Source: Trametes villosa (taxonomy: Eukaryota > Basidiomycota > Agaricomycetes > Polyporales > Polyporaceae). Taken from it: a DNA stretch of 64,000 nucleotides. Shown here in pieces: positions 10,730 through 60,279 of this stretch (position 1 is its first letter; each line of letters begins with the position of its first letter). The stretch lies in assembly GCA_002964805.2 (NCBI GenBank), contig PUDQ02000027.1, positions 372,001 to 436,000 on the forward strand, read 5' to 3'. Below the pieces are notes generated by a model. That model had not been told where the DNA came from. It made no database searches and saw only the letters and a list, made by a program, of their open reading frames with translations. The position numbers were made by a program, and so were the translations under genes.

Positions 10730-12481
10730 TCACGTACCGGTGAGATCGCTTGTCAAATCGTGTTTCGCGCTGTCGACAATCTCCTGTTGCAAACGTTCGC
10801 CCTCCTGCACCGAGATCGGCTCCAGCGTTCTCCCATCGGCGCCGTCTCCGACACGCCACCAATTGTGGTTGCGAATCCAATCCGTCCGCCGCAGCTCGTC
10901 CCACTCGTACACAGGCGCGCTCGAATCATCGACGAACGCGTCAGACCCTGCTTCATCGGCGCCATCGCCGAGCCCAGAGGTGCGGCGCTCGCCCTCCCTC
11001 GAGCCCGCGAGATTGTCCTCGTTTGTACCCTCGTCGAGGATCGCTAGACAGCGCAGCGCGGGCATCCCGTCCGCGAGGCGTTGCGGGAGCGTGCACATTG
11101 ATGCGATGCGGCGCTCTTCCATCGTGCGAGCCTCCGCGCGCAATGCCTTGTCGTCCGTGTCGTCGTACTCGAAACCGATGGGGAAGAAGCGCTGAACGCG
11201 TGGGTAACCAAGCCGCGGGACGTAGAGACGTAGGCACGGCACCGGGATGGCACGTAGCGCGTCAGGGAGATTGTCCTACAAAGGGAATAAGAGGGTTGTC
11301 GGGGTATGGTAGTTGACGGTACTCACCAACCACTCAGAGTACTGCAGAGCGGGCTGAGGTACCCCTATTTTGAGCTCTAAGACGCGTAGCCTAGGCGCGA
11401 CTTGCGGGAGTAGACCGCAGAAAGTAGTAGGCGGCGAGTTACCGACGATGAGACAGAGATACAGCTCGACGGGGGATGTGATGCGCAAGAGGTTCATGAA
11501 CCGCGTGACTTCTTCGTCCTCTGTGTCGCCAGGCAATCTCAGCTCGCCGCTGATCTGGAGCTGCTTGACCTGTCCTAGCTTCTCGGCTACACAGACAATC
11601 TCCTCGTGTTCTCCGAGCATCAGTCGTTGGAGAGGACGCCAGGGGCTTCCCGCGCGGGGCTGAACGGGCGCGTTTGTAGTCTCCGCGGGGTCGACCGAGA
11701 ATATGAGCGTCGAAAGTCGCGGGCATAGCTCAACCATGTCGAGCGCGGGCAAGGTGGACTCTGAGAGCCGGAGATAGGTGATCGATGGGAGTTGCGGGGG
11801 CACGAAGTCCTCGTCCCAAGATGTCGACGGCGTGAAGTTCCATAGCTTGACGATCTGGAGGTTCTGGAAGGGTGCGAGCGCGGAGAGGAGCGCAGGGAGC
11901 GTTTTCGTCTCGCCCTCTAGCGGATAGTCGTCCTCGACGTAGTAGGACAAGGTGAGCCGCTTCAGCTCCGACGTGCACGAGCAGGAACCCAATGTGATGA
12001 GCGCACTGTCACCGAGCGAGGAGAGCCGCAGGTTGGACAAACGCGACATAGACGTAAGAGCAGTACCGATCCGCGGGTCGCGCTGCAGGCACGGCTGGAA
12101 GCGCTCTAGCGAGAGCTCTTGAATGTTCTGCGCGCGTAGGAGGATATCGCCAATGAGGGGTGCTTGCGTGAAGCTGGCAGCATAGTAGATATTGTCGTCG
12201 GAGTGAACACTGGAGGCGCCATCGGACGCCTCAGAGTCGTATTCGCCGAAGGTGTGCACGTCCACTGTCAGCTTTTGGAGGTAGTGCGTGCGGTCCGCGA
12301 GCAGATAGATGTGTAGCTTCCGGAGCATCGAGGGCTTCCAGCACTCTATCACGGCGGCGACGCGCGTGAGGGCAAGGTCGGAGAGACGCTTGGAGGAGAG
12401 AGCGACATTGAGTGCGTCCTTCCCATGAAGATTGGAGAAGACTAGGATGAGCACGTCGTCTGGCAGTTCGAGCAGCTGCAT
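10730..12481 (-). CDS. F-box-like protein A, divergent group-3 member
   Basis: Exon 1 is 11327-12481 and exon 2 is 10730-11275 (minus strand), joined in phase 0, giving 566 residues. The N-terminus LELPDDVLILVFSNLHGKD followed by ALNVALSSKRLSDLAL is an F-box-like motif (about residues 4-45), which in known families binds Skp1 and recruits targets to an SCF ubiquitin ligase. The body (about 60-385) is Leu-rich with irregular L-x-x-L repeats such as LRLSSLGD, ELKRLTLSYY and LPSITYLRLSE, as in the superhelical substrate domains of F-box/LRR proteins. The intron falls right after SEWL. Exon 2 holds the family C-terminal module: RNHNWWRVGDGADGR, then ISVQEGERLQQEI. It is the first of eleven paralogues and the most diverged from C, F and H, which it most resembles. 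Confidence 0.85.
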
Positions 12482-12934
12482 TAATATGCTTGATTGGCAC
12501 AGTTACTAAAATTCCGAGAGATAGAGTGGAAAAGTGCTTACTACAGTCTTCGTATTCGGTTTGGGTGGTGGGCAGAAGCAAGAAGGTGGTAAGCGCCCGT
12601 AGTGCCTGAAGCAAATGCGTCATCATATCGCGCCGATCTAAGTACTTAAGTACTAAGTACTGAGTACTGAGTAGCGATCGAGCCACGGGCCGTTGTACTA
12701 GTAGCACTTCACTGTTACAGCTATAGTACGGGCTTACAACTCGCCTAACAGCTCCCATGGCACATCCTGTTGTACCCTCACCACTGTCTTCCCTGATCAA
12801 GGCTTTGGGCGAGCGCGATGAAGCTGGAGCAACAGATGGCATAGGTACGACTGTAATGACATTTGCATAGGGCAGGCACTCCCAACAGTTGTCAAGATGC
12901 CTCGTGCGAAACCGACACCACGACCGCTCCCACT
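12482..12934. other. Promoter region of gene A with repeats
   Basis: About 450 bases between gene A and the convergent-side end of the phosphotransferase-like gene. It holds the AGTACT repeat at 12641-12673 and no coding sequence that I can support. Confidence 0.4.
12641..12673. repeat. AGTACT palindromic tandem repeat
   Basis: Starts with the perfect 14-base palindrome AGTACTTAAGTACT (12641-12654) and continues as AAGTACTGAGTACTGAGTA. It lies about 160-190 bases upstream of the start codon of gene A and is bracketed by CGATC/GATCG. Confidence 0.8.
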
Positions 12935-13978
12935 TTACGTCGGAGATCCCTCCGTCTTCTGGGGGCAATCCGGCAACCCGGTGTCGAAAGTCCAGTAACA
13001 GTCGTCCTCGTAACCCTGCGCAAACCGTTCGACGTCCACGATGGCATCCCAAGCCTCCAGAGTCTTCCGGTACTTCTCCTCCGCCTCCCCCTGGCCATCA
13101 CCCTCCTCTCCGGACGGTGGCCTTCCCAAATCGCCGTCTCCCCCACGTGTCGCCCCGCACTCACGGCGCAAGACCTCCCTCAGGACACCTAACAACTCCT
13201 TTCGCCACTCGGGCAGGTGCGCGCCCGTCAAACGCGCGGCGACGTACTCGAAGTACGCCGGCAGTATGTTCGCCCGCTCCCAGTCGATGAAGCCCGTGAT
13301 CGCGAGTGTGTCCGGGTCGACGAGGATGTTCCCGTTAGTCAAATCGACGTGCGTGAGGACAGGGCGGTCCCAACCGTCCACACCGTTGATTTCGCGCTGC
13401 ACCTGCTCGAGCTTTGGAATCCGCTCGGGAGGCACGGTGGAGGCGCGGAGTGCGTCGAGGCGGGAATCGTCCCATTCTCCGCGGGATGAGCAGCACGAGT
13501 ATGCCACAGGCCGCGTGTGGTAGTACAGGATGTATGGCTGACGTCGGGGGCGCCCGTAGTAGTCGAACCGCTGCTCGCGCATGCGGATGAGCAAGTCGCA
13601 CAGCCCTGACTTGACCGCCGTGCGTTGGGGTGCGGAGAGCGTGGGCCACAGTTCGACGAGCGGAGTGCCTGGCTGGAGAGTAAGGACGAGGGCTTCTGTC
13701 CGTCTAGGAGGTTTTCCGGGGGCGGGAACAGGAGAATACGTAATACCGCCGAGCACGCGTGGGACGCAACCGCCGAGGATCGCATGAGCGAGGGCGGTCA
13801 TAGCGTCCTCTCCATCGTCCACGCCCATTTTGATGACGCTGGCAGGAGAACGCAGGAGGAACCACCGGCCAAACTGGAATATAGTTGGCCCCGACAGTCG
13901 CGGGAGGTCGGGGAGGGAGGTCCACGTTTCTCGAGGAACCTGAGTTAGGTCGTCCACTATCTTGTCTTCGACCGACAT
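12935..13978 (-). CDS. Aminoglycoside phosphotransferase-fold (kinase-like) protein
   Basis: An intronless 347-residue frame. The catalytic loop is clear: HVDLTNGNI with His210, Asp212 and Asn217, matching the H-x-D-x-x-x-x-N pattern of the APH/choline kinase fold. It is followed by ITGFIDWERA, whose Asp232 is the metal-binding position of the family. A candidate ATP-contact lysine is in ASVIKMG (about residue 50). The N-terminal lobe includes LVLTLQPGTPLVELW, a typical hinge region. An acidic Gly/Glu-rich insert lies at about 285-305. Many fungal members are orphan small-molecule or protein kinases, so the substrate cannot be named. It sits between F-box genes A and B on the same strand, with no visible operon-like link. 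Confidence 0.82.
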   Translation of the reverse strand: MSVEDKIVDDLTQVPRETWTSLPDLPRLSGPTIFQFGRWFLLRSPASVIKMGVDDGEDAMTALAHAILGGCVPRVLGGITYSPVPAPGKPPRRTEALVLTLQPGTPLVELWPTLSAPQRTAVKSGLCDLLIRMREQRFDYYGRPRRQPYILYYHTRPVAYSCCSSRGEWDDSRLDALRASTVPPERIPKLEQVQREINGVDGWDRPVLTHVDLTNGNILVDPDTLAITGFIDWERANILPAYFEYVAARLTGAHLPEWRKELLGVLREVLRRECGATRGGDGDLGRPPSGEEGDGQGEAEEKYRKTLEAWDAIVDVERFAQGYEDDCYWTFDTGLPDCPQKTEGSPT

Positions 13979-14507
13979 GGGGTAGGATCGATTGGCTAGC
14001 TCTGTATGAGCTTTTGCTGAGCGTCGTCGTTGAGGGGGAGGGTGAGGTTAGGGCAAGCTTCGCCACCGAGTCTGTGGAACAACCGATGTTCGATTAGCGT
14101 CAAGATATACACCTCGCTAGACGCGCATGCGCTATAAGGTCCGTAGATCCATCAGAACCACGTTAAGATGCCACGATTCCAACACGTTTGCGACATGTGT
14201 ATGCAGGTCAAGCTTCTCCAGGATGATGCGGCCCGCGCATGATCAAGTTGTGCACATATTCATCATCACTATCGACAAATGGTTGCGTTCTACTTGCAAT
14301 TCGATCAGCATCTCTGGTAGTAAGAAAGCGTCCTGAACTTTCAGCTTGCCAGAACTGTTTCGGGGACATGCGCCGATGCACGAGCATCTAGTTATTCAGT
14401 CCATCAGGAACAGCATGAAAGGCGCAGTTCGCCGATATCACAGTAAATGCGGACGGGATTTTCAGGCTCACCTGATCTTCTGCGACGCACGCCCTGGGCA
14501 AGGTATT
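13979..14507. other. Intergenic, no gene seen
   Basis: About 530 bases between the phosphotransferase-like gene and the 3' end of F-box gene B, both on the minus strand. A GGTTAGGG telobox-like motif occurs near 14045. Open frames are short and featureless. Confidence 0.4.
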
Positions 14508-33080: not shown

Positions 33081-34752
33081 ATGGCGCCCCCCGCTCTCGA
33101 CGACGACGTTCTCCGACACATTCTCTCCTACCTCCGCGGGCGCGATGCCCTCCACGTCGCGCTGAGCTCGAAGCACCTCTACGGCCTCGCCGCGCCACGC
33201 ATCCCCGCTGTGGCTAAGTGCGAAAAGCCCACCGCGCTGAGCAAGCTGCATCACTACATGCTCTCCGGCTCGCCGCCGCACGCTCGCGATCTGGAGGACC
33301 TCAGGATCTCCTTCACAGCGTTCGATTACCCCGACGATCCGGAGCAGATGGACACCGGCTACAGTGACTACTGGGACTTCTCGCAGGCGTCGCTGATTGG
33401 GGACATTCTCGCGCACGCGCCGCGGGTGCGCCGCCTCGTGCTCGACCGGCTGCATCCCTGCCTCCTCGAGGACTCGCGCATCGGGGCCGCGTTGGTGGCG
33501 ATGGACCGGCTCGTTGTCGCGGACTTTGGCACCTTCGCGGACGGGACGTGGGCTTACGTGCCGAAGCTGTGCGCGGTCCTCCGCATCCTGCGCCTGTCGT
33601 ACTTCTGGGCCGAGGACGACGACCTCGAGGGGGAGAGGAAGACTATCCCGCCGCTTGTGGAGGCGATCGCTCCGCTACAGTACCTGCACACCCTGGAGCT
33701 GTGGAACTTCGACCCGCCCCGGATGCCGAGCGACGAGAGCCTCCTACCGTGGTTGCCGTCCATTCGCAACCTCCTGCTCAAATCGGCATCGCCGAGTGCG
33801 CTCGAGCTGCTTGAGCGCTGCCCAAACGTGGTCGACCTCGAAATCTCTTTCAATCGTTGCGAACCTGAGCTTCAGCCGCTCGTAGATGGCCCCCGGTGGC
33901 AATCGCTGCGCAGTCTCACTCTCGGGAATGTTTCTGAGATCGGCTTCATCCTCCACCGCGTCGGTGCGGTCGACAGAATACGGATCCCGGACTCAGCCTG
34001 TTTGCCGGACCCAGCCTGTTTGGTCGTCGGCCGCGGCGGGGAGGAAGAGGAGGCGGGGGTGGCCGGTTTGCTTCAGCTCATTGCCCAGACATCCCCTATC
34101 AGCCTCTCCCTCTCTGTCGGTGTGTGCAGCGCCGCTCCCATGATGTTCTGGGTCCGCGTGCCTGCGCTCGCGCCACGGTTGCGGATGCTGACACTGAGAG
34201 TGTCCCTGGCGGCACTGTCTGCGGAGAACAAATGTTGGCTGGTATGGATATCCTTCTGATGAAGCTTTGCCTGGATTAACTGACCGCGCTTTACAGGACA
34301 ACGTCCCCGAGGCGTTGCGGACGCTTCCGCTTGTGTACCTGTCAGTTGTGGTGCCTGAAGCGAAAACAGCCCCTCCCTCGCCAACGATCCCCGCCAACGC
34401 GATGGTCGTCGACGGGGTGCCGCCTCCGGGCGGTGATCCCGAGTTGGAGGAGATTGAAAAGCATCGACGCTTGTCGGTGGCTGCGCTTCCAGGGAGACTC
34501 GTAGCGGCTATTCCTTCCCTGCGCTTCCTTTCCGTGGCCATGGAGGAGGCCAACAAAGCGAACCTTTCGGACTCGGAGACTCCGGAAGCTCAAGACCTGG
34601 ACGATGAGGAACGGTCGTCGCTCCAGGGGAAAGTGACAACGACTACCCGGTATTGGAGCATTGTGGATGGGGTCGATGTTGGGTCAACCCAGGGTTGGCA
34701 GGAACTGTCGGTGGCGGAGGGGGAGCGGATTCGGGCACTTGCGGAAGAATGA
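33081..34752 (+). CDS. F-box-like protein C (group 3)
   Basis: Exons 33081-34241 and 34297-34752 join in phase 0, giving 538 residues. It starts MAPPALDDDVLRHILSYL, then GRDALHVALSSKHLYGLA, almost the same as F and H. The body shows Leu-rich turns such as VRRLVLDRLHPCLL, LHTLELWNFDPP and LRMLTLRVSL. Exon 1 ends at NKCWL, the family intron site. The C-terminal module reads TTRYWSIVDGVDVGSTQGWQ, then ELSVAEGERIRALAEE at the stop. It opens the main array and is followed on the same strand by group-2 genes D and E. The duplicate pair H then G has the same group order in the opposite orientation. Confidence 0.85.
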
Positions 34753-37298: not shown

Positions 37299-39155
37299 AT
37301 GGAGACACCCATAGCTGTCGAGTTCCACTCTGATCAGCTCAACGACGACGTCCTTCTCTCTATATTTTCATACCTCCATGGAGAAGATGCACTCAATACT
37401 GCTCTGGCCTCAAGGCGATTCCACGAGCTCGCTGTTCCTCGCGTGGCCGCCGAGGCATACTGCTGGAATCCGGCGATGGTCGTCCGGCTCTGCGACTACA
37501 TGTTGTCACCCCTTGGTTCCCTGCCTCGAGCTCGACACTTGCAAGCCCTCGTCTTGATGCGCCCAGCCTTCGCCCGGGGCCCCGAAGTTACCGACGGCAC
37601 CTCGCTGATACCGCTGGAAGAGACATCTCGGCTCGGAGATCTACTCGTACAGACACCCGGGCTGCGCACATTGCGATGGGGCGTGGACTTCCGCGCTCAT
37701 TGCGCCCGCGACCCGCGCCTCCGACAGGCGTTCGGAACATGGAGCAACCTCAGCGTCCTACGACTGTGCCGGGTAGACAACAGCATCATCTCCCTCTTGC
37801 AATCCGTCGTCACCCTCCAGGTTCTGGCCTTGGTAATGTATGTCTCAGAAGAGCCTCGGCCGGAAACAGAGCAGACGGTCGACCGTGACGGCGTGCGTAC
37901 GTTGCTGAAGACGCTATCCCGGCTACGCCGCCTGCACACCCTCTCCCTTTCCCTGTTCAATGGCTTTCCGGCGGAATCCACAACACGAATAACCAGAGTG
38001 TCGTCATCGGCACCTCCCCGAGCGTCATTCGCGTCCATTGTCGATCTGACACTCTCCGACTGTAGCTCGACCACCTTCCTCCTAATCCCCCTATGCCCCA
38101 ACCTATCCCGGCTCACGATTGCCTGTCCCACCAGCGGACCACCGAGGCCCCCGGTGGACTTTCCTCTACCCCGCGGAGCCCAGCTCCCCCCTCTGGAATC
38201 CCTTACGATATCGAGCCAGGACCTGGCCTTCTTGGGCGTGGAGCGACTGAACGCTGCTCGGAAATTGCACCTCTGCGACGCGATCTTCGAGAGCCCTTTG
38301 ACGCCTGAGATATTGGCCCTCGCCCTCCCCGCGCTCTCTCCCACTGCGATCGCGGTCAGCGCCCGCTTGCCGGGTGGGACAAACCCCTCCTGGGATGTGC
38401 TAGCGAACTACGGGCCCAGGGTGCACATATTGGACATCGAGATCAAAATCGGCGTACTTCATAGCCTTGGCCCCTGGTCTCGGCCTGGTCTTGGGTGGCA
38501 GGTAATGGTCACTGTCATGCGATTTGCACGAAGCACTGTACTGACACAAGTGGTATGCGTAGGATAACCTCCCCAAGGTGCTCGCCCGTATCCCGCTCGC
38601 CTCCCTGCGGCTCATTGTGCATGCCGGTGCGCAGGGCCATCCGGGCGCAGGCTGGCGGGCGCGGGCTGAAGCTGCCAGAACGAAATCTCGTACCCCGCTG
38701 CAGGCGACATACGAATGGAAGGACACGCTCGCGGCAGTCCAGAAGGCGCTCTTCGAGGCACTCCCCACGCTGCGCCTCCTGGCCGTTGCGGAGGAGGATA
38801 GGGCTACGCGAATGAGCGCGCTGCCACGGGCTCCGCATAGCTATATGGACGGCGGGATAGAGGATGACGCTGAGGACGCCAGGCGTCCGGTGGATTGGGA
38901 TACGCTCGATCGGCGGCGGTTCCGGTTCCACTGGTGGTGCCGCGATGTCCCTGGAGGAGAGCCCGTGCGGGTTACGGAGAAGGAAGGCCAGCGGGTGTAC
39001 GAGGGGATTATGGCCATCTATGGGAGCACGACGGGCGGGTCGAACCCAACGACGAACCTCGACCGTGAGTGCCAGCTAGTTAGCTTTCCTCGCGCGATGC
39101 CGGGCTAACGTGCCGCCTACGTGTAGAGCTCTTTGCTTCGATGTCTCTGGGATAA
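37299..39155 (+). CDS. F-box-like protein E (group 2)
   Basis: Exons 37299-38501, 38563-39064 and 39127-39155 give 577 residues. The start METPIAVEFHSDQLNDDVLL, then SIFSYLHGEDALNTALASRR, is shared with G. Leu-rich elements include LRTLRWGVDFRAHC, LSVLRLCRVDNSIISLLQSV and LRRLHTLSLSLFN. Exon 1 ends at GLGWQ. Exon 2 begins DNLPKVLARIPLASLRLIVH and carries FRFHWWCRDVPGGEPVRV with KEGQRVYEGIM. The 29-base last exon encodes QLFASMSLG. Exon 2 (502 bases) and exon 3 (29 bases) have exactly the lengths found in G. It is tail-to-tail with the gene at 39741-41240, an arrangement partly repeated around G. Confidence 0.85.
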
Positions 39156-44239: not shown

Positions 44240-44261
44240 TGAGAGACCTGCACGATTTATA
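44240..44261 (-). promoter_or_regulatory. Core promoter of F-box gene F
   Basis: On the minus strand TATAAATCGTGCAGGTCTCT, then CATCCTC, aligns with genes C and H at about 100-117 bases before the start codon. Confidence 0.5.
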
Positions 44262-44768: not shown

Positions 44769-44810
44769 GGATATATCCCGGACAACGCGCACCCGGGCCC
44801 GCGCGCTACT

Positions 44811-44965: not shown

Positions 44966-45026
44966 AGAGGGCGGAGACGGGGTGCTTGAACCGGACCTAG
45001 GGCCCAGGCGTGGCAGACGCCGAGGA

Positions 45027-47757: not shown

Positions 47758-49696
47758 TTAAAAGTACATGAAGGTATCAAGCTGCAAATCCTCCGCAAGT
47801 GCCTGTATACGTTCCCCCTCCCTCGCGGACAGCTCCTGCAAGCCCGAGCATCGGGTCTGCCCGCTCGCACCTCCTTTCTCAGTCCTCCAGTAGCGTGTAA
47901 TATGATTCTCTTCATACACGTGCAACGACCGCGACCTGGTAAACAAATTCACCTTGTCTGAGGCGTCTGGGTAGTCCGGCCCAGCCCAGGGAAAACACGG
48001 CACCTCCATGGCTCCTGCCGCAGCGAGGGTGAGGAAGCGCAGGGACGGGATGGCATCCGCGAGTCGCGCGGGAAGTGCAGTGACCGACAGGAGCCGTTGC
48101 TCTTCGACCTCCTCCGCGCGGGCGGCGAGTTGTTCAAACGGCACCGGGTCGGCGTCCATCAAAGTGAGCCAACACGGCACCTCCATGGCTCCTGCCGCAG
48201 CGAGGGTGAGGAAGCGCAGGGACGGGATGGCATCCGCGAGTCGCGCGGGAAGTGCAGTGACCGACAGGAGCCGTTGCTCTTCGACCTCCTCCGCGCGGGC
48301 GGCGAGTTGTTCAAACGGCACCGGGTCGGCGTCCATCAAAGTGAGCCAATCTGCACACAAGGGGGCCGTGCGGTGCGCGGCCGTCCGCGCTACGACCGAC
48401 AGGTAGACAAGCGAAAGGACGCCGAGGGTCGCTGGAAAGTTGTCCTGCAAGAGGAAGTACTCAGTCAACTAGCGCCATGCGATGAGAGCGGGATGCGCGT
48501 ACCAGCCAATACTTGTTCTCGAGAGGCAGTGCGCCCAGTGACACCTGCAGTTGCAGGAATCGCAAGCGGGGCGCGAGCGCAGGGACGCGTTGCCAAAATT
48601 CCGTTCCGGGGGCTTTCTCCGACACCGCAACGCACATGGAGAGGCTGATGGGAGACGTCCGCGCGAGGAGTTGGAGGAAGTCCTCAACCAGCGCCTCGTC
48701 AACACATGCAGAGGCGCAAGTGCCGATGATCAGTTTCACGCGCGGGATCCGTACACTGTCTACCGTGCTGACGCGGTGAAGGATGTGTTTGATATCCTTG
48801 GGCTTCGACAGAGTCAGGGTGCGCAGCGAGGGCCACGGGGGTCCGCCCTGGAGGGGCGCAAATGTGCGCCAAGGCTCATCGAAAGTGACCAGGAAGTGAA
48901 TGTCGAGATTGGCCAGGTGCGGGCAACGTCCGACCAGCTCGAGCGCGCTCGGCGACGCCTCGTAAAGCTGAAGGTTGCGCATAGACGGCAGCCACGGCAG
49001 GAGGCTCTCGCCGCCCGGGGTCACAGCTGGTTCGAACCGCTGCAGTACCAGCGTGTGCAGATGCTGCAGCGGAGCAAGAGCCTTTACGAGCGGCGGGACC
49101 GTGTTCTGCTTGTACTGCCGCAGTGAGTCGTCGAGGATCATGAAGTACGACAGCCACAGGACGCGGAGGGCGGCACCCAGCCGTGGCACGCGCGTCCACG
49201 TCGCGTCCGCGACCATCGTGAAGTCCGCGATTGTGAGCCTGTCCATCGCCCCCAGCGCGTCCCCGATGCGCGGGTCTAGAAAGAGGCAGTGATGCAACTG
49301 CGCCAGCTCGAGGCCGCGCAACCGCGGCGCGTGCGTGAGGATGTCACCGAGGAGGGGCGCCTCGGAGCACTCCCAGCGACGAGGGTAGCCGACAGTCGCC
49401 TGCGTATACCAGTGGAGCATTTCGACGGGGTCTGATATTTGCATGGGGCGATCGGACCCCATAGCAGGGATGGCGAGTTCCTCGAGGTCGTGTGCGTGCG
49501 GCGGCGAGCCGGAGAGCATGTACTCGTGGAGCGCGCGCAAGTCGGAGGGGTCTTTGCACCAACCCACTGCCGCAATGCGTGGCGCGGCGAGCTCGTAGAG
49601 GTACTTCGAGGCGAGGGCAACGTTGAGGGCATCTCCTGCGTACAGGTAGGAGAGGATATGACGGAGAACGTCGTCGTCGAGAGCGGGGGGCGCCAT
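47758..49696 (-). CDS. F-box-like protein H (group 3) with internal duplication
   Basis: Exon 1 48503-49696 and exon 2 47758-48444 (minus strand), phase 0, give 626 residues, the longest of group 3. The start MAPPALDDDVLRHILSYLYA, then GDALNVALASKYLYELAAPR, matches F. Exon 1 ends at NKYWL. Exon 2 begins DNFPATLGVLSLVYLSVVAR. It then contains a 59-residue unit (from WLTLMDADPVPFEQLAARAE to LTLAAAGAMEVPC) twice in a row, identical at the DNA level. The module follows: ITRYWRTEKGGASGQTR, then ELSAREGERIQALAEDLQL. The duplication accounts for most of the extra length compared with F. Confidence 0.85.
47994..48349 (-). repeat. Perfect 177-base in-frame tandem duplication
   Basis: Copy 1 is 47994-48170 and copy 2 is 48171-48347, with the following bases GTGAGCCAA also matching the junction. 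I see no mismatch between the copies. The unit length is a multiple of three and adds 59 residues to protein H. Confidence 0.95.
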
Positions 49697-49784
49697 CCGT
49701 CCGCGCGGGTTGGTGGTCGATGTGGTGGGCGCGACAGGGCAACGGTCGCAGGGGAGAAAGCCACGAGTTGGTCGTGTGGACAGA

Positions 49785-49815
49785 ACGGGAGGATAAGAGA
49801 CCTACACAATTTATG
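49785..49815 (-). promoter_or_regulatory. Core promoter of F-box gene H
   Basis: On the minus strand ATAAATTGTGTAGGTCTCTT, then ATCCTCC, lies about 90-120 bases before the start codon and matches C and F. Confidence 0.5.
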
Positions 49816-49857
49816 TGAGCGTGATACATCCACAACGCATCCCCGGGCCCGCGCGCT

Positions 49858-50005
49858 ACTCTCTACATGGGTACATGCACCGTCCGCAACCGAGCAACGT
49901 CCTGTCTCGCACGCGCGCGCCCGCACAAGGCCATGGCACCATGGCGGGCCCTGGCGACGCTGCGCGCAACAGGACACGCCAGAGGTCCAAGCGGGCAATG
50001 GTCCG
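49858..50005 (-). repeat. Upstream block shared with genes C and F
   Basis: Counterpart of 32782-32926 and 44811-44965, about 160-310 bases upstream of the start of H. Directly beyond it lies the group-2 relic. Confidence 0.65.
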
Positions 50006-50009
50006 CGCC

Positions 50010-50262
50010 CGCGTGTCCCTCCGGTCAGCCATCCGTGTATCGACACTGGGCCTTGGACGCTGCGGCGTAAAGGGGGCCAGCTTGGCCGAGCTCCTCGGTA
50101 ACGGCGAATACGTGGAGCGTGTCGAAGAGTGGCTTCGAAATCACCGAGAGTGTTTCTTGGCAGCGGTACGCCAGATGCATCCGCTGTGGCTTTTAGGCGC
50201 GCTTCTAGTCTTCATGAAGAGCTTACTTGCACGTTCAGCCTAAGAGAGACGAGCGGGACGCC
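50010..50262 (-). pseudogene. Relic of a group-2 F-box gene (exon 2 part)
   Basis: On the minus strand GVPLVSLRLNVQ matches RIPLVSLRLMVH of D. After a frame break, CQETLSVISKPLFDTLHVFA, then VTEELGQAGPLYAAASKAQC, matches KETLFAIPKTVFDALPTLRV and AIAEEVDQAGLRALHAATPK of D. In-frame TGA stops occur after SSS and after RYTDG. The F-box and Leu-rich exon is absent. Confidence 0.85.
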
Positions 50263-50375
50263 GGAGTCGAGGTGGTGGACGCGGTCTGTCACGATCACGA
50301 GGACAGGGTCACAGGCGCGCGTGGCTAATAGACGGGCGATTACTCTCGCGCGTCTTGTCCTCCTCGTCCTCCGCG

Positions 50376-53300
50376 ATGTCTGAGCCAAACACACCCCGCC
50401 GCCGCTCTAAACGCGGCCAGCCTGTCGTCGAGTACCTCGCCTCTTCCTCGTCCAGCTCAGCTGCCGACATCATCCCCTCCGACCCTCTCCACTCCCGCCA
50501 CTCTCGACCCGATGACTTCTTCGAGGACGAGGATCACGACCCCGACGCCCTCAATGCCTTCCAGACGCACTTTTACCGCACATATGCTTGCAAGAGCAAG
50601 TCTTCGACAGCCCGCGCCCCTACTCGCACCTACGGCCGCGTCTCTCGCCCCCGCAAGAGCGATACAGACACCCCCGTCGTCTTCAACGTCGGTGACACTG
50701 TCCTAGTCAAGACTGGCTCTCGTGTTCCGAGCGTGGCCGTCGTCACTGCCGTATGGAAGGTGGAGGGCGACGGCTTCCGGCCCAAAGCCCCTCTCCACGT
50801 GCGAGTCCACTGGTTCGTCCGCCCCTCCGAGCTGCCTAAAATTCGGGCAAGGAGGCACTTTGACGAGGTACGTCTCCGTCCTCGCCCCCGGACCATCCAC
50901 AAACCTACATCTATGCCAAAAATCCCTCATAATGTACTTCGATGAAAACGGGCTGACTGCTAGCTCTACAGAATGAAGTCCTATACAACATCTCCGCCTC
51001 CGAGACGCTTCCTCCCTCTGCCATCCTCGCCCACTGTGCTGTGTCCTCCTCCCCCTCCAAACGCGTGACTGTCCCCGAGGATGCCAAGCCCGACGACCTC
51101 TACTGCCACCTCGCCGTCGACCCCATGCGCGGGCTCTACTACGCCTTGAACTGGGACGCCTTCCGCCTCGAGGCGCTGGCGACCCAGTCCTTGCAGTCGG
51201 AGCAGGAGGAGGAGGCGGAGTGGCCGAACGACGAGGTGTGGGCCGTCAAAGCGGAGAGTGCACGGAAGGCGCGAGAGGGTGTGCAGGGACCCACTAAACG
51301 AAGGCGCGTCGCGCGGGATGCGAACGAAGATGAGGACCGCGATGAGTCGTCCGACGACGCGTCCGGAGACGAGTTCGAGGCGCCGCTCAAGGACGAGACA
51401 GACGACGAGGTCGAAGACGACGACGCGGAGGAAGAGGACGATGTCGTCGCGGAGCTCGAGCCGCGCACGCCCTCGCGCAAACGCAAGCGCGCCGGGACGT
51501 CCACCCCGCGCACCCCACGAACACCCCGGCGCACCGCCTCCGCGTCCGCCACGACGACCCCGCGCCGGCGCGGCAAGGACGCATCGCTCGCGCAGCCGAC
51601 GCCGCACTCGAAGGCCGCGCTGCGCAAGCGGAAGAAGACCGCGCTCGCGGTGCGCCCGCCGCCCGCCGCAGCGGGCATGCTCGACCTCGACGAGGGCGCG
51701 GCGCAGACGCTCGGGGAGGACCCGTGGTTGAGGGCGATGCATGTGCTGCATGTGGCGGCGCGCCCGGGGGCGCTGCCGTGTCGCGAGGCGGAGTATGGGC
51801 GGGTGTTGCGTGCGGTGGAGGAGTTGCTGGAGGAGGGGAGTGGGGGGTGTATTTGTGAGTGCGCTGTGACTGGTGTGGAAGGGGGCGTGCTGATGGTTGC
51901 GTTGACAGATATTTCGGGGGTGCCGGGGACGGGAAAGACTGCGACTGTGCATGCTGTAGTACGCGAGCTCAAACGCATGGCGGAGCAGAACGTACGTCTC
52001 TCTCTTCCTCCCATCTCCCCCCTCATTCGCACTGAACATATTCTCTATCGTATAGGAAGCAAACCCGTTCGCGTACGTCGAGATCAACGGGCTCAAGATC
52101 CCCGAGCCCGCGGCCGCGTACGGCCTGCTCTGGGAGGCCGTCTCGGGGCACGACGCCGCGCGCGACGGGCACATGAAGATCGGCGCAAAGGAGGCGCTGC
52201 GGCTCCTTTCGCAGCACTTTAGCGGCGCGGCGCGCGTCGGGCCCGCCGGCGGGCACGCCTGGTGCGTCCCCCCTCCCCATCCTTCGTGGTGGGTTCAAGG
52301 ATACAAGGGTGAATGCTAACGAGGGCGCGTGGGGTGTTTGGAGGGCAGCGTGGTACTGATGGACGAGCTCGACCAGCTGATGACGACGAAGCAGGACGTG
52401 GTGTACAACTTCTTCAACTGGCCGACGCTCGCGCGCTCGAAGCTCGTCGTGCTCGCGGTCGCGAACACGATGGATCTGCCGGAGCGCGTCATGTCCGGGC
52501 GCGTGCGCAGCCGTCTCGGTCCGTATCCTTTCCTCTCCTCTTTCCCTACCCTGTGCCCCCTTCTCCCTTATGTGCCGTATATGCGCGAAAAGCTGACGCG
52601 GACACGGGGCGGCAGGGATGGTGCGGATCAATTTCCAGCCGTACACGACGCCGCAGCTCGAGCAGATCGTGCGCGCACGCTTGGCGGGCGCGAAGCGCGG
52701 GCTGCCCGCGGACGCGCCGGACGTGCTCGCCCCCGACGCGCTCAAGTTCGCGGCGATGAAGGTGTCGTCGATCAGCGGCGACGCGCGGCGCGTGCTCGAC
52801 ATCTGCCGGTGCGCCCCTAACCCTCCCTTCTCTCTGCTGTTAGCAGGATGGCGCTGACGCTGGGGGGTGTGAGATAGACGGACGGTCGAGCTGGCGCAGG
52901 CAAGGCGGCGGACGGCGCGCACGGAGGACGTGAAGGAGGTGATTCGGGAGATGCAGAACAGCCCGACGGCGGCGTACCTCCGGGAGCTTGCGTTCCATGA
53001 GCGGCTCATGCTCGCTGCACTGCTGCGGTGTGTGCGCAAGGAGGGCGTCGAGGAGATCAAGTGGGCCGATGTGCGTCTTCCCCTTTCCCTTCTTCCTTAA
53101 TGTTCCGCTGATAGTAACACTCACTGCCACGCTCTCGATCGCTTGCAGGTCCAGCACCAGCATCTTATATACCTAAACCTCCTGGGCGGCGCGAATACGA
53201 GCGGCAGTGACGCAGACAGGGACCCGGACCCGGTGCGCCGACCAAGCGCGGACGAGCTCGGGGAGGTGCGCGACGCGCTCCTCGCCGCGCACGCGCTGAT

Positions 53301-53436
53301 CTGCGAGGACGGCCCCGCGGTGGCACGGCGTGCGGAGGGCGAGCGGCGCGTTGCGCTGAATCTGGAGTATGCAGAGGTGGAGCGCGTGCTGGGTGAGGTG
53401 GGCGGGCCGAGGTGGCGGAACGCGCTGAATGTGTGA
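50376..53436 (+). CDS. ORC1: Origin recognition complex subunit 1
   Basis: Eight exons: 50376-50867, 50972-51854, 51909-51991, 52056-52261, 52349-52518, 52616-52808, 52878-53070 and 53149-53436, all in phase, giving 835 residues. ORC1 is the ATPase subunit of the complex that marks replication origins and loads MCM helicase with Cdc6. A BAH domain spans about residues 103-235 ([23 protein letters not shown]). A basic/acidic disordered linker follows (about 270-400). The AAA+ core has Walker A GVPGTGKT (462-469, in [16 protein letters not shown]), [13 protein letters not shown], Walker [11 protein letters not shown] (556-565), sensor 1 [13 protein letters not shown], and [13 protein letters not shown] for sensor 2. 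A winged-helix region closes the protein. It is a conserved, normally single-copy gene lodged inside the F-box array. Confidence 0.96.
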
Positions 53437-53733
53437 GGTGGGCATGGTGCGTGGACGGCGGACTCGGATGGGGATCATGATTATTGTGTGACGGTATTTT
53501 GTGTTGTGATATTATGGATGCTGCGTCAGAGCTGAGCCACGAGTGAGAAAAGGCCCACACATGATCAGGCAGTATACTCCATCGACATCTCCCCCCCTGG
53601 AGGTGGGGATCCTGCAGGCCACTGAGAGTATGGTTAGGGTTTGGGTAGCCCTTTGCGCTCACGCGCGCGCGGTAAATGCACTTCTTTACTTGGGCATCGA
53701 CTCGGACAAGCCTCGAGTCGTGTATGCGAGCGG
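53437..53733. other. Intergenic, promoter of F-box gene I
   Basis: About 300 bases. GGTTAGGGTTTGGG (about 53632-53645) and GCGCGGTAAATGC further on are shared with the region upstream of K. Confidence 0.5.
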
Positions 53734-55725
53734 ATGGACCTGCTTGCTCTCAACGACGATGTCCTCCGCGCCATCTTCAACAAGCTCTACGGCGAGCACG
53801 CGCTCAATGCTGCGCTCACCTCTCGCCGGATCCACGATCTCGCCGTCCATCGCGTCGCGGCGATAATTCTCTGCGAGGATGGCCGCCAGCTCCGTCTGTT
53901 GCATCGCTACCTCTTCTTCGGCTCACGCCCGCGCGCGCAGTACCTCGAGAGCCTCACGCTCTGGTTTGAAGTATACGCGCTCGACCCCGAGATTTACGAC
54001 TCGCGGCCGAGCACGCCGACTTTCGAGGAGGCTCACGACTGGTCGCAAACACGCCTCCTCGTCGACATCCTCACAAATGCCCCGAACCTTTCCCGGATCG
54101 CTCTCCCCTACCTCCACCACACCCTCGCCCGCGATGAGCGCCTCGGCGATGCCCTGTACGCGCTTTCGCGGCTTACTATGGCCCGATTTGACACCGTCGG
54201 GGACACGACCGTCGCCGGGGTCATCCGTAGCCTCGCACGCAGCCTCGAAACCCTGGAGCTGGAGTTCCATGGCGAAGATTCCGGGCTCATGAACGACATT
54301 GAAGGCGAACCGACGACGTTCAGGCCGCTCCTCGACACCCTTGCTGTATTCCCGGCGTTGCACACCGTGTCCCTATCCTCCTTCCGCCACCCGGTGTCGT
54401 TCCGCGCCCTCGAGCGGACATACTCACCGCCGCTGCTCCGCACCGTGCGCGCGCTCCGGCTGAACGACGTCGAGCCTGCTGCGCTCGATCTTGTGCAGCT
54501 CTGCCCGAACCTCACCGACCTCGAGTACTCGCTCTTTGACGTACCCAGGGACAACGCGGACCTCGCGGCCGTCGTGCCGTGCGAGGGAGCGCCGTGGCCG
54601 CCGCTCCGCTCGCTTACTGTGGTTGAACCGGGCGACCTCGCGTATGCGTCGCGCCTGCTCGGGCGCGTGCGCAGCCTCGTCGTCTGGAATTACCTGGCCA
54701 TGGGCGACCTTGCGGACGCGGGCCTCCCGCTCCTGCTGACGGTGGTCGAGAAGGCGGCGCCGGTGGCGATGTTCCTCCCGCTCGAGGTCTTGCCGCAGCC
54801 GATGCAGTTCTGGGGCGAGGTCGCTGTGCGCGCGCCGAGCCTGCGCGTCCTCGAGCTCAAGCTGAACACCGAGGCCCTCACGCTCGATTATCTCGGCTGG
54901 CTGGTGCGTCTTCGCTCCTCACTCTGCTGCTGCTTCCCGCGGCTTATCCAGCACTCGCACTGCAGAACGCGGTCCCGGACGCGCTCAAGCCGCTCTCAGC
55001 GTCGCTCGTCCTGGTGCGCATCCTCCTCCCGCGGATGCGGCACTACGGCCGTGCGCGCCGTGGCGCACCAAAGAAGATCATAGCTGCGCTCGAGGAGGAC
55101 CGGTCTCGCGCCGCGCGGAAGCTTCCTCAGCTTCTTGTGGAGGCGCTCCCGCGGCTGCGCTTCGTCGAGATCAGCGAGGCGCGGCCGAGCTCTGGGGTGT
55201 ACAGCCCAGTGCAGCGCTCGGAGGAGGGCGAGGAGCATGCTGGACCCGGAGCTGCTGTGGAGGCGGGCGCGGATGAGGGCGAGGAGCTTGAGGAGCCCGA
55301 GATTGCGCCACGGGACTCAGACTCAGAATGGGTGGATGAGGAGCACTCCGACACAGACGGGGAAGAGCATTTTGCCTCGGACTCTGACTCAGGTTCGAAC
55401 TCGGACTCGGATTCGGGCCACGACAGCGACTTCGAGTGGGCTGGGAGGGAAGAGGAGTATGGGGACCCGGAGGAGCTAGAGGAGCGGCGATTACGTGGGC
55501 ACAGGAAGATCGTCGCGCTTGCGTATCGGCGCTGGTGGCGGGTCCGGCCAGGCGGAGACGGGGCGCAGGACCGGATACTGGAGGAAATCCCGGAGGCCGA
55601 CGGGGAGAGGGCGCAGCGGTTCTTGGAGAACGCTGACGATGAGGAATTGGTGCGCATTGATGGTGAGTTGTATGATGAACTGTGTTCCGAACGTCACTTA
55701 ATAATTGGCAGACTTGCTCCCGTGA
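53734..55725 (+). CDS. F-box-like protein I (group 1)
   Basis: Exons 53734-54903, 54966-55662 and a 14-base terminal exon 55712-55725 give 626 residues ending D-L-L-P. The start MDLLALNDDVLRAIFNKLYG, then EHALNAALTSRRIHDLAVHR, is the same in K. Leu-rich turns: LPYLHHTLARDERLGDALYA, LETLELEFHGED and LRVLELKLNTEALTLDYLGW. Exon 1 ends at LGWL. Exon 2 starts NAVPDALKPLSASLVLVRIL. It has an acidic Asp/Ser/Glu stretch (about residues 490-540, including SDSDSGSNSDSDSGHDSD), then YRRWWRVRPGGDGAQDR and ADGERAQRFLENADDEEL. It is the duplicate of K, including flanks on both sides. Confidence 0.87.
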
Positions 55726-56108
55726 AGGACCGTGCAAATGCGCTGATCACTCTTTTCGATCAGTCGCCTTACTCAACGTGATCCGCTACCACTCAGATGT
55801 AGTGGCTACAGGTGTAAAACTTCCCGCAACGCATAGGGCAGTGTGCTTTCCAGCTCCGCCGACCCCTATGCTGAGACGGTCCACATTGAGCTCCGAGAGC
55901 GGCGTCAGGTAAGTATAGGCAGCTTCGTACCTTGTGTCGACTCTGCGGGACAGTAGCGTACGGCGAGCACATCATACGGTGAACAGAATTGAAAGGGGTA
56001 GTCCAGATCGCGTTAACTGTACGAGAATGATCCAGAGTCAGCGGGACAGAGGATCACACAAACGGGGTCTATCACACGAGCAACAAATCGACACCGAGGC
56101 CCAGCGCA

Positions 56109-56175
56109 TCAGACGCTCCGCCTTCTCCTTCTCGAGGCGAGTAAAGATCTAGCATGCGCAGGGGCGCGCAAATGG
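56109..56175 (-). pseudogene. Tail fragment of the gene at 60613-61369
   Basis: On the minus strand HLRAPAHARSLLASRRRRRS, then V and stop, matches HPCAPTHAGPSLASRRRRRS, then I and stop, at the end of the small gene beside K. Only about 22 codons are present. The fragment was carried along when the K region was copied to form I. Confidence 0.85.
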
Positions 56176-56239
56176 ATATGGATAGACCCAGCGCATCCCG
56201 AACATCCACCCATGTGCGTGCATGTGTCGTCTATCGTCC

Positions 56240-58083
56240 TCATGGGAAAAAGTCTGGCTCCGGATCAGTAACGCTCGCTTGCCCACAACTCGAGGAAGCT
56301 CACCTTCTATGCGCGATATCTTCTCTGCGTCCGCATCCTTCAGGAAGGATCGCACCCGCTCTGCATCTGCACGCGAGATGCTCTGAAGCGCAGGACTGGG
56401 CGTAGGGCCGCCAGTGCAGGCGCTGTAGGGCCGGACGCGCCACCACTCGTGGTATACGACCTTGCGCATTGCGACGTAGCTGTTCATATACTCGTCCTCT
56501 TCGGTCTCCCACAAGTACTCGCCCTCCTCGGGCTCTTCCACGGGGGCGTCAGCGGCCGCGGCATCGTCCTCCTCTTCCGGACAGTACTCGTAGCAGTTGC
56601 GGACGGTGCTACGCCACTCTTGCGTGAGGCCAACAAAGCGGAGTGACGGGAGAGAATCAGCGAGGCGCTGAGGGAGGTCCCGCGCGGCCCTGTTGCGGTC
56701 ACCCTCCAGCTTGGTGACCGTCTTGAATGCATGTGGCTCGTTGTAGTGTATGAATCGGACCAGTACTGGTAAGAGGATCCAGAGCGATACCAGGGAGTCT
56801 GAGAACGGTCGCAGCGCGTTTGGGATGTTGTCCTGTAGCGGAGGTGGGATATCAGCTATGGGCGATACATTGAGCATATGCAAGCGAGCAAGACACACCA
56901 GCCACCCGAGACATTCGAGCGTGATAGCGTCGACGTTGAGCTTCAGCTCGAGGAAGCGCAGGTTTGGGGTGAGGGTCGCGAGCTGCGACCACAGCGTTAT
57001 GGGCTGGACACCGATTTCGAGCGAGAGGTACATCCCCACGGGCGACGCTGTGCGGACAACCTCAAGCGGCAAAGCGCTCTCTTGGTGGTTTGAGCGGATA
57101 TTGGAAGCGAGCGCGAGGAAATGCACGTGGTTAAGTACCAGTGCTATATGTGTGAGGTCTGACACGTCCCAGACGACCAGCACACGCAACGGCGGCCAGG
57201 AAGCACCCGTTCGGGGCGGCAGGTCTAAGCCGAGTCTGGTTATGCGGTGTGCGTCGAGGGTGTGTTCGAGAAAGGTGAGGTTCGGACAGAGATGCACGAG
57301 GTCAAGTCCTGCGGGCTCGCCAGCTGTAAGAGCGAGCGAGCGTACCGAGGGGAGCAGGGGCGGCGTGTATCTTCGGCCCACGCTGTTTCCGTTCGGTGGA
57401 GCCCGCAGCGCTTCGATGCACTCGATGCGGAGAGTGTGTAGGGAGGGAAACATTGCGAGGGTGGTGAACAGCGCATGGAATGCGGCGTTGGTGTCCGGGT
57501 AAGAGAAACGAGTAGGGATATTGGGGATGTCGCCGGCCAGTAGCTCTAGGGTGTGCAGGTGCCGCACTGAGCTGAGGCCGCGCAAAAGTAGGACCGTTGC
57601 GTGGGTGAGAGTCGAGATGGACACGTAGGTGAGGTACGAAAGAGCACAGATCGCATCGCCAAGGCGAGAGTCGTACTTCACCGCAGGGCCAAGATAAGGC
57701 GCGCTGAACTCGCGAAGGTTGGGTGCATTCATCAGCAGATCGACGATGAGGCGGGTTTGGGACCAGTCGCACATCGAGTCGTGGTAGGTTTGCGGAGGTA
57801 CCGCGCTCACCCGAGCAGCATAAACGTCCCTATCGTGACTGAATACAGTGAAGTAGAAAAAAAGGGTTTTCATGTGGTGGGCACGCGGGCGCGAGCCGAA
57901 GAACATATACCGATGCAGCAGACGGAGCTGCCGGTCGTTCTTGCAAATGATCACCGCAGCGACGCGGTGGACGGCGGAGTCATGGGCGCGCCTGCACGTT
58001 AATGACAAATTTAGTGCGTCTTCGCCATGAGTATATGAAACTACACAGTGTAGAACGTCGTCGTCGAGTGACAGGAGGCTCAT
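56240..58083 (-). CDS. F-box-like protein J (group 1)
   Basis: Exons on the minus strand: 56899-58083, 56304-56832 and the 14-base exon 56240-56253, giving 575 residues ending E-D-F-F-P. The start MSLLSLDDDVLHCVVSYTHG, then EDALNLSLTCRRAHDSAVHR, is closer to B than to I or K. Leu-rich turns include LRGLSSVRHLHTLELL and LRFLELKLNVDAITLECLGW. Exon 1 ends at LGWL. Exon 2 starts DNIPNALRPFSDSLVSLWIL. It has an acidic insert (EEEDDAAAADAPVEEPEEGE), then YHEWWRVRPYSACTGG and SRADAERVRSFLKDADAEKI. It is head-to-head with K (179 bases between start codons) and tail-to-tail with I. Confidence 0.85.
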
Positions 58084-58262
58084 CCGGTATAGCGGGAGAG
58101 ATGGTGGTGGTGCTCATCCAAGTTCAGTATGTCCTGCATTGCTGCAAATCTCGGCGGCAGGTCGCCTGCCCTGAGGTTAGGGTTACAGCCTATGCGCGGT
58201 AAATGCGCTGTCTAACTTTACCTGGACCCACCTCCGAGCCGACAAGGCTTTGCGAGTCGCGG
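58084..58262. promoter_or_regulatory. Shared divergent promoter of genes J and K
   Basis: Only 179 bases separate the two start codons, so both promoters must overlap. It contains GAGGTTAGGGTTAC (telobox-like, about 58173-58186) and GCGCGGTAAATGC. Both are also present upstream of I. Confidence 0.65.
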
Positions 58263-60279
58263 ATGGACCTGCTCGCTCTCAACGACGATGTCCTCCGCGC
58301 CATCTTCAACAAGCTCTACGGAGAACACGCGCTCAATGCCGCCCTCACCTCCCGCCGGATCCACGATCTCGCCGTCCATCGCGTCGCGGCGATAATTCTC
58401 TGCGAGGATGGCCGTCAGCTCCGTCTGCTGCACCGCTACCTCTTCTTCGGCTCACGCCTACGCGCGCAATACCTCGAGAGCCTCACGGTCCGGAATGAGG
58501 TATACGAGCTCGACCCCGATATCTACGACGCCCGGCCGGCTTCGCCCACCTTCGAGGAGGCTCACGACTGGTCGCAAACTCGCCTCATTGTCGACATCCT
58601 CACGAATGCCCCCAACCTTTCCCGGGTCGCCCTCCCCTTCCTCCACCCCGCTCTCGCCCGCGATGCGCTCCTCAGCAATGCGCTTTGCGCGCTTCCGCGG
58701 TTGACCACTGCCCGGTTTGACACCGTCGGGGACACCGCCGTCGCTGGCCTCGTCCGACGCCTCGCACGCGGCCTAACCACCCTGGACCTCGAGTACCATG
58801 GGCAAGATACCGGGCTTTGGAACTGCATCCAAGGCGAACCAACAACGTTCAGACCGCTCCTTGACACACTCGCCGCGTTCCCTGCGCTACACACCGTGTG
58901 CCTATCCTTCTTCCGCCACCCGACATCGTTCCGCGACCTCGAGCGGACATACTCACCGCCGCTCCTCCGCAACGTGCATGCGCTCAGGCTGAGCGATATC
59001 GAGGCTGCCGCGCTCGACCTGGTGCAACTCTGCCCGAACCTCACCGACCTCGAGTATTCGCTGTTTAACGCGCCGCGGCTGGATGCGGACACGCTCGCGG
59101 AAATCGTTCCGTGCGAGGGCGCACCATGGCCGCCGCTCCGCTCCCTCTCTGTGATGGAGCCGGCCGAGCTCGCGTATGCGACGCGCCTGCTCGGGCGCCT
59201 GCGTAGCCTCATCGTCTGGAATTACTTCGGCATGAGCGACCTCTTGAACACGGGCCTCCCGCTCTTGCTGACGGTGGTCGAGAAGGCTGCACCGGTGGCG
59301 ATGTTTCTCCCGTTCGAGGTTCTGCCTCAGCCAATGGAGTTCTGGGGCGAAATCGCTGTGCGCGCGCCGAATCTGCGCGTCCTGGAGCTCAAGCTTAACA
59401 CCGAGGGCCTCTCCCTCGATTACCTCGGCTGGCTGGTGCGTCTTCGCTTCTGGCTCAGCTGTAGCTTCGCGCAGCTCATTTATCACTCGTCCTGCAGAAT
59501 GCGGTCCCGGACGCGCTCAAGCCACTCTCGGCGTCACTGGTCCTGGTGCGCATTCTCCTCCCTCGGATGCGGCACTACGGCCGCGCCGGCCGTCGCGCCC
59601 CGAAGACGATCGTGGACGAACTTGAGGAGGACCGGTCGCGCACTGCACAGAAACTTCCCCAGCTTCTTGCCGACGCGCTCCCGCGGCTACGGTACGTTGA
59701 GATCAGCGAGGCGCGTCCGAGCTCCGGGGTATCTGCCGATCTAAGACGACAGGAGAAGGATGAGGACCATACTCTGCCCGAAGCTCCCTCGGATGCGGGT
59801 GCGGGTGCGGATGAGAGTGGGGATGAGGAGGACGAGGAGCCTGAAATCGCGCCAGAGGACTCGGACTCGGACTGGGTGGATGAGGACCAGTCTGACGCAA
59901 GCGGAGAGGGACACCCTGACTCGGACTCCGACTCAAGTGACGACGATGGCTCGGACTCAAGCTCGGATTCGGCCCGTGACAGCGACTTCGACTGGGATGG
60001 GCGGGATGAGGAGTACGGCGACCCGGAGGAGCTGGAGGAGCGGCGCCTCCGCGAGCACAGGAGGATCGACGCGCTTGCGTATCGACGCTGGTGGCGTGTC
60101 CGGCCGGGTGTAGACGGGACGCAGAACCGAACGCTTGAGGAGATTCCGGAGGCTGTTGGGGAGAGGGCGCAGCGGATTTTGGAGGACGCTAATGATGACG
60201 AGATGGCGCGCATCGATGGTGAGTGGAATGAGCATATGTTTCGAGCGTCACTGAATCATTAGCAGACTTCCTCCCGTGA
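58263..60279 (+). CDS. F-box-like protein K (group 1)
   Basis: Exons 58263-59435, 59498-60218 and the 14-base exon 60266-60279 give 635 residues ending D-F-L-P. The N-terminus MDLLALNDDVLRAIFNKLYG is identical to that of I, and the following Leu-rich body differs by scattered substitutions (for example LARDALLSNALCALPRL against LARDERLGDALYALSRL). Exon 2 starts NAVPDALKPLSASLVLVRIL. It carries an acidic Asp/Ser stretch (including SDSDSSDDDGSDSSSDSA) of different composition and length from that in I. Then follow YRRWWRVRPGVDGTQNR and EAVGERAQRILEDANDDEM. The complete neighbour gene at 60613-61369, of which I has only the tail, marks K as the source locus of the duplication. Confidence 0.87.

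What the first reader, a model, noticed from the sequence alone, without database searches (positions are those of the whole stretch)
10730..60279. Array of eleven F-box/LRR-like paralogues in three structural groups
Eleven intact genes (A-K) and one relic share an F-box-like start, a Leu-rich body, a phase-0 intron at the same site and a common C-terminal module. Nine of them fall within 27 kb. Seen directly: the motifs, intron sites and three terminal-exon types (14 bases; 26-29 bases; none). Established: F-box proteins bring substrates to SCF ubiquitin ligases, and Leu-rich domains select them. Inference: this is a fast-evolving set of ubiquitin-ligase receptors in one lineage, with local duplication, inversion and gene loss still going on.
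Basis: partly seen in the sequence, partly recalled or inferred. Interest (0 to 1): 0.87.

Follow-up and report, generated by a model that had tools for sequence, protein, structure and literature searches.

The report
Fungal F-box receptor gene array
A stretch of fungal DNA, probably from a wood-decaying polypore, carries eleven related genes whose proteins are predicted to fold like known F-box/leucine-rich-repeat proteins and so likely choose proteins for destruction; such arrays are a known kind, but what is probably the second parental copy is also assembled, and there one of the genes is broken.

Summary
In detail: eleven intact gene models (A-K) and a relic, with a shared phase-0 intron and terminal exons of 14 nt (B,I,J,K), 26-29 nt (A,D,E,G) or none (C,F,H). 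The F-box/LRR reading is supported: a Pfam F-box model passes its cut-off in 5 of 11 genes, and a confident AlphaFold model of gene I (pLDDT 89) matches SKP1-bound FBXL2 and FBXL17 best. "Fast-evolving, one-lineage expansion" is only partly supported. The tree gives four clades (A; CFH; DEG; BIJK), each with relatives in other Polyporaceae. In three of those species members of two clades appear to share a contig, so the mixed cluster is probably ancestral, with later local duplications. Two further contigs (C28, C88) are probably the other nucleus's haplotype: C-G and I-K are intact and collinear there, so duplications and inversions predate the haplotype split. H is broken there (two frame breaks, exon 2 interrupted) and lacks a 59-residue duplication seen in the window. 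Pooled allelic dN/dS is 0.13 (F-box), 0.34 (LRR body), 0.28 (exon 2): purifying, freer on the body, no positive selection detected. Likely role: SCF substrate receptors; substrates unknown.

The parts
10660..12481 (-). Gene A (572 aa): exons 12481-11327, 11275-10738, 10685-10660 (26-nt terminal exon)
   Evidence: F-box over Pfam cut-off; groups with T. pubescens P0025, T. versicolor P0027 and Lenzites P0028
14508..16274 (-). Gene B (539 aa): exons 16274-15162, 15089-14597, 14521-14508 (14-nt terminal exon)
   Evidence: F-box (PF00646) over Pfam cut-off
33081..34752 (+). Gene C (538 aa), two exons
   Evidence: intact second copy on C28
35142..36915 (+). Gene D (550 aa), three exons, 26-nt terminal exon
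   Evidence: intact second copy on C28; nearest other-species row T. versicolor P0003, branching unresolved
37299..39155 (+). Gene E (577 aa), three exons, 29-nt terminal exon
   Evidence: F-box over Pfam cut-off; intact second copy on C28
42434..44144 (-). Gene F (551 aa), two exons
   Evidence: intact second copy on C28
45610..47432 (-). Gene G (565 aa), three exons, 29-nt terminal exon
   Evidence: F-box over Pfam cut-off; intact second copy on C28
47758..49696 (-). Gene H (626 aa), two exons; broken on the other haplotype
   Evidence: window copy intact; other copy with frame breaks and an interrupted exon 2
47995..48348 (-). 177-nt in-frame tandem duplication (59 aa) in exon 2 of H; the two copies are identical; single on C28
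50028..50259 (-). Relic: D-like exon-2 fragment; the similarity reaches further on the other haplotype (C88:110273-110479)
50244..52820 (+). ORC1-like gene (BAH and AAA pieces) inside the array, between H and I; extent approximate, not modelled
53734..55725 (+). Gene I (626 aa), three exons, 14-nt terminal exon
   Evidence: structure model of exon 1; intact second copy on C88
56240..58083 (-). Gene J (575 aa), three exons, 14-nt terminal exon
   Evidence: F-box (PF00646) over Pfam cut-off; intact second copy on C88
58263..60279 (+). Gene K (635 aa), three exons, 14-nt terminal exon
   Evidence: second copy on C88 open, ending one codon earlier

Best explanation
The window holds eleven intact gene models whose proteins are predicted to fold as an F-box joined to a leucine-rich-repeat arch, and they likely serve as substrate receptors of an SCF ubiquitin ligase in what is probably a polypore fungus. 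Predicted mechanism: the N-terminal F-box would dock on the genome's single SKP1 hit, and so on a cullin. The repeat arch encoded by exon 1, extended by two further strands from exon 2, would hold the substrate. In the modelled relative of A, a low-confidence linker and a W-rich beta-hairpin plus helix close the C-terminus. The array would spread substrate choice over paralogues that share one ligase core. Shown here: open gene models, relatives in other species, purifying selection, predicted fold. Inferred: SKP1 binding, ligase function, and that C28 and C88 are the second haplotype of a dikaryon. History as read from the tree: a mixed cluster of four clades, probably older than the Trametes-group species sampled, within which C/F/H, E/G and I/K arose by later duplication; H is intact in the window and broken on the other haplotype.
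Confidence: 0.78

Rival explanations
1. Old, stable genes that merely lie side by side, not an expansion.
For: A groups with T. pubescens, T. versicolor and Lenzites proteins. Members of two clades appear to share a contig in three other species. Both haplotypes hold C-K in the same order.
Against: C/F/H, E/G and I/K (and, less surely, B/J) form clades without a relative from another species inside them (100/98, 100/100, 100/99, 95/85). Sampling is thin: 34 relatives, each search limited to about 8,000 scored candidates.
Confidence: 0.2
2. A decaying family: mostly relaxed, non-functional copies kept open by chance.
For: H is broken on one haplotype and one relic is present. The F/H pair has omega 0.67 (body) and 0.79 (exon 2); single values on few changes are higher for some F-boxes between alleles (J 1.01, C 0.75).
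Against: Pooled over the eight genes with intact alleles, omega is 0.13-0.34 by region, and reading frames stay open where introns change length.
Confidence: 0.08
3. A non-self recognition array (vegetative incompatibility or intracellular defence) in which allelic diversity itself is selected.
For: Leucine-rich arches, clustering, the intact/broken difference at H, and a transposon-rich second haplotype nearby. In C. elegans, ubiquitin-mediated responses act against microsporidia and a virus (PMC4063957, start of abstract in the listing).
Against: F-box alleles are less diverged than their surroundings, not more: 3.4% mismatches in gene spans against 8.3% outside, the lowest of 621 circular shifts (partly a coding effect). 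Pooled omega is well below 1; the only regional value reaching 1 is J's F-box (1.01 on four changes). Strand-exposed positions are marginally more variable (P = 0.044), with no significant excess in 5 of 5 paralogue pairs. Alleles pair by gene. The STE3 matches are all on C10 and the one Homeobox_KN match on C49, so no mating-type linkage is seen.
Confidence: 0.07
4. C28 and C88 are segmental duplications inside one nucleus, not the second haplotype, so that the fungus has about 20 such genes.
For: The assembly holds them as separate contigs, and SKP1 is found once, so the assembly as a whole is not doubled.
Against: Over 4 kb at its end C28 is practically identical to the window, then diverges, as a haplotype branch would. 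Gene order is the same. An ORC1-like gene would also have to be duplicated. C27 ends at 440651, shortly after the window, while C88 goes on, as when an assembler follows one haplotype and then the other.
Confidence: 0.1

Closest known systems
FBXL-type F-box/LRR proteins (SKP2, FBXL2, FBXL17; plant TIR1, COI1, MAX2)
   Same: N-terminal F-box helices followed by an LRR arch; best structural matches
   Different: 10-19% identity in the structure alignments to these proteins; repeats too divergent for most Pfam LRR models (5 of 33 match LRR_14 at E<=0.01); extra C-terminal exon module; no tested substrate
Expanded F-box families of mushroom-forming fungi
   Same: Many F-box genes per genome: 210 in Flammulina filiformis, 80 of them developmentally expressed (PMC7567395, passages read); F-box proteins among orthogroups specific to complex multicellular development (PMC8893723, passages); F-box-like domains enriched in Ganoderma australe (PMC8955403, passage). 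This genome gives 148 F-box-like matches with 150 of 519 candidates scored (second copies included)
   Different: This family is a divergent subset with its close members in one array; elsewhere the searches show two on C16 and weaker ones on C10, C24, C56, C79 and C86
Species-specific F-box expansions of Caenorhabditis and plants
   Same: Copy-number change by duplication in F-box families (PMC8665587, PMC3719486: search listing with start of abstract only)
   Different: Here the cluster core is probably shared across related species; comparison of selection with those papers was not made

Membership tests
F-box proteins (PF00646/PF12937) | F-box recognised by sequence profile | tested here: met
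   Over a curated cut-off in A, B, E, G, J (5 of 11); below cut-off in C, D, F, H; I and K only E about 0.05. Met for the family, not for each member
F-box proteins (PF00646/PF12937) | Three-helix F-box fold | tested here: met
   Predicted model of I: helices 8-15, 20-27, 31-41; the alignments with SKP1-bound FBXL2 and FBXL17 start at residue 1. Modelled for I and P0027 only
FBXL (F-box plus leucine-rich repeats) | LRR solenoid after the F-box | tested here: met
FBXL (F-box plus leucine-rich repeats) | LRR recognised by sequence profile | tested here: inconclusive
   LRR_14 at E<=0.01 in 5 of 33 family members; among the ten window frames only G, below cut-off
SCF substrate receptor | Binds SKP1 and delivers substrates for ubiquitination | not testable with these tools
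   A SKP1 gene and cullin genes are present in the genome; binding not tested
Recent lineage-specific tandem expansion | Paralogues of one species group together to the exclusion of other species | tested here: inconclusive
   Met for C/F/H, E/G and I/K; not met for A or for the array as a whole, whose four clades each hold other species; D against E/G unresolved
Diversifying receptor family | omega above 1 or excess change on the putative binding face | tested here: not met
   Pooled omega 0.13-0.34 between alleles; body and exon 2 at most 0.79 between paralogues; J's F-box 1.01 on four changes; face excess marginal at family level (P = 0.044), not significant in 5 of 5 paralogue pairs. Site-level tests not run

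The most novel reading that the evidence does not exclude
The array is a chromosomal 'receptor bank' of the Polyporaceae: an old mixed cluster that steadily supplies SCF receptors with new substrate choices, in which the two nuclei of one mycelium carry unequal working sets (H working in one nucleus, broken in the other), so that mating itself changes what the ligase can destroy.
Probability: 0.1. Interest if true: 0.6.

Novelty: new member of a known kind. Interest (0 to 1): 0.33.

Why it matters
Large F-box families of mushroom-forming fungi were met in the papers seen here mainly as counts and expression patterns. Here one array can be read gene by gene on two probable haplotypes with outgroups, which separates old cluster from later duplicates and shows purifying selection rather than an arms-race signature. 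H, intact in the window and broken on the other haplotype, offers a natural loss for testing what one receptor does.

Tried and rejected
Positive selection: not found in pooled Nei-Gojobori estimates; deeper paralogue pairs are near synonymous saturation, one value undefined in D/E and J/I. Excess change on the strand-exposed face: marginal for the family, not significant in paralogue pairs after matching for hydrophobic positions; a first version without that matching looked stronger and was dropped. Mating-type linkage: not seen. NCBIfam gave nothing for 5 proteins. Literature: nine searches listed no paper whose title or abstract start describes this array; passages of PMC7567395, PMC8893723 and PMC8955403 were read, no whole paper. 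A gene-conversion reading of the mosaic allele divergence was noted, not pursued. Other F-box clusters of the genome (C3, C9, C32, C10, C87) were seen only as hits.

Rows dropped: the second-haplotype copy of H (broken) was left out of the tree and of omega; A and B gave no second copy in the contigs read or in the protein searches. P0013 (short) was left out of the tree (56 rows = 11 window, 8 second-haplotype, 4 others of this genome, 33 of 34 relatives). P0012, P0013 and P0024 were left out of the variability profile (42 rows). The two structure jobs used 24 and 22 of the 34 relatives plus the 11 exon-1 proteins. Of the transposon-like frames, 8 were scanned and 5 gave a Pfam match; Ty3-type is my label, recalled.
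Full report
What is there. The window is bases 372001-436000 of contig C27 (440,651 bases long) of a 46.7-Mb, 140-contig genome. I rebuilt the genes from open frames and splice signals. Eleven models, 538-635 residues long, are intact: A and B on the minus strand at 10660-16274, and C, D, E (plus), F, G, H (minus), I (plus), J (minus), K (plus) within 33081-60279. All share a phase-0 intron of 51-72 nt after a Trp-containing codon pair. A phase-1 terminal intron leads to a 14-nt exon in B, I, J, K and a 26-29-nt exon in A, D, E, G; C, F and H have none. The relic is a D-like exon-2 fragment at 50028-50259. An ORC1-like gene (BAH and AAA pieces; PDB matches named ORC1) sits inside the array between H and I.

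Why the models can be trusted. Eight genes have an intact second copy elsewhere in the assembly. Between copies, five of 14 introns change length, by 1, 2, 3, 3 and 7 nt, while all eight coding sequences stay open, K's second copy ending one codon early. Three annotated relatives end in matching C-terminal peptides (P0027, P0003, P0020); P0017, P0019 and P0025 end otherwise. There is no RNA evidence.

History. Three protein searches, each scoring only the 7,995-7,999 best word-matching candidates, gave 13, 11 and 10 relatives. The named ones include Trametes, Lentinus, Ganoderma, Pilatotrama and Earliella, all Polyporaceae in the NCBI taxonomy, and Sparassis as a distant Polyporales hit; Lenzites, Cubamyces and Daedaleopsis were not looked up. 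In the tree of 56 rows the window genes fall in four clades: A with T. pubescens, T. versicolor and Lenzites; C/F/H beside T. versicolor P0029 and Lenzites P0031; D/E/G with T. versicolor P0003 and T. polyzona P0007, their order unresolved; B/I/J/K with Pilatotrama, T. cingulata, T. elegans and unnamed relatives. C/F/H, E/G and I/K exclude other species with high support, B/J with less. Each pair spans two clades. The mixed cluster is therefore probably older than these species, with later duplications inside it. I did not see those maps themselves.

The second copy. C28 (46.6 kb) and C88 (120.8 kb), reversed, run collinear with window 28986-47453 and 48370-64000. From 29000 to 33000 C28 is practically identical to the window; beyond that, mismatches range from about 0.4% to 20% per 500 bases. 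I read this as the other nucleus's haplotype; read depth would decide. C-G are intact on C28 and I-K on C88, in the same order and orientation, and each allele groups with its own gene, so duplications and inversions predate the haplotype split. H differs. Its copy on C88 has frame breaks near residues 30 and 209, and its exon 2 is split between C88:112286 and C28:3167, with a short direct repeat at the two ends. Beyond the C88 break lies an open frame with integrase and RNase H domains, which suggests an inserted retroelement. Frame breaks could in part be assembly errors; the interruption is structural, though the two contigs are not joined in the assembly. The window's H carries an exact 177-nt tandem duplication that the other copy lacks. 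The other haplotype also holds about 24 kb and 22 kb that the window lacks beside H, with copia-type, Ty3-type and tnp2 transposon genes. The relic's similarity runs on into the 22-kb block, so part of that block was probably lost from the window rather than gained by the other haplotype.

Selection. Over eight allele pairs, pooled Nei-Gojobori omega is 0.13 for the F-box (bootstrap 0.05-0.24), 0.34 for the body (0.26-0.44) and 0.28 for exon 2 (0.21-0.38). Single genes vary: body 0.12 (K) to 0.58 (G); J's F-box gives 1.01 on four changes. Between paralogues the body reaches 0.67 and exon 2 0.79 (F/H); deeper pairs are near saturation at synonymous sites. The F-box is held tighter than the body, as expected if it docks on a shared partner, and nothing calls for positive selection. 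Strand-exposed positions are slightly more variable than other non-hydrophobic positions (entropy 2.83 against 2.66 and 2.57, permutation P = 0.044); in 5 of 5 paralogue pairs the difference is not significant.

Against the non-self reading. Alleles in the spans of C-K differ by 3.4%, the rest of the aligned region from 33 kb on by 8.3%; the spans give the lowest value of 621 circular shifts. Part of this is coding constraint. The ORC1 frame has allele dS 0.337 and the 39741-41033 frame 0.267, against 0.024-0.116 for the eight F-box genes; two other frames gave 0.003 (in the identical stretch) and 0.058. So the array shows no sign of old balanced alleles. The STE3 and Homeobox_KN matches lie on other contigs.

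Verdict. A real, well-formed array of FBXL-type genes; its kind is known and its cluster core is probably ancestral to the Trametes group. New here are the member list, the four-clade history and the two-haplotype view, with one receptor intact in the window and broken on the other haplotype.

Noticed in passing
window 50244-52820: An ORC1-like gene (BAH, AAA) sits within the array; its open frame has allele dS 0.337, far above the neighbouring F-box genes.
   Followed up: partly
window 28986-64000 against C28/C88: Haplotype divergence is a mosaic: near 0% to 33 kb, about 1% over H and I, 10-20% at about 51.5-53.5, 55.5-56.5 and 60.5-62 kb.
   Followed up: partly
C28:3902-28124 and C88:88526-110408: Blocks of about 24 and 22 kb found only on the other haplotype, with copia-type, Ty3-type and tnp2 transposon genes.
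   Followed up: partly
window 23876-27130: Long open frame with an AreA-type GATA domain and DUF3295.
   Followed up: no
window 12935-14047: APH-type phosphotransferase frame on the minus strand between A and B.
   Followed up: no
window 29190-30933: Fungal_trans-type transcription factor frames left of the array; the 29440-30933 frame is identical at the protein level on C28 (497 codons compared).
   Followed up: no
C3, C9, C32, C10, C87: Many further F-box-like matches in dense clusters; 148 matches genome-wide with only 150 of 519 candidates scored.
   Followed up: no
C-terminal exons of B, I, J, K: The 14-nt terminal exons end the proteins with an acidic residue, two hydrophobic residues and proline (ELFP, DLLP, DFFP, DFLP); T. 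elegans P0020 ends alike.
   Followed up: no
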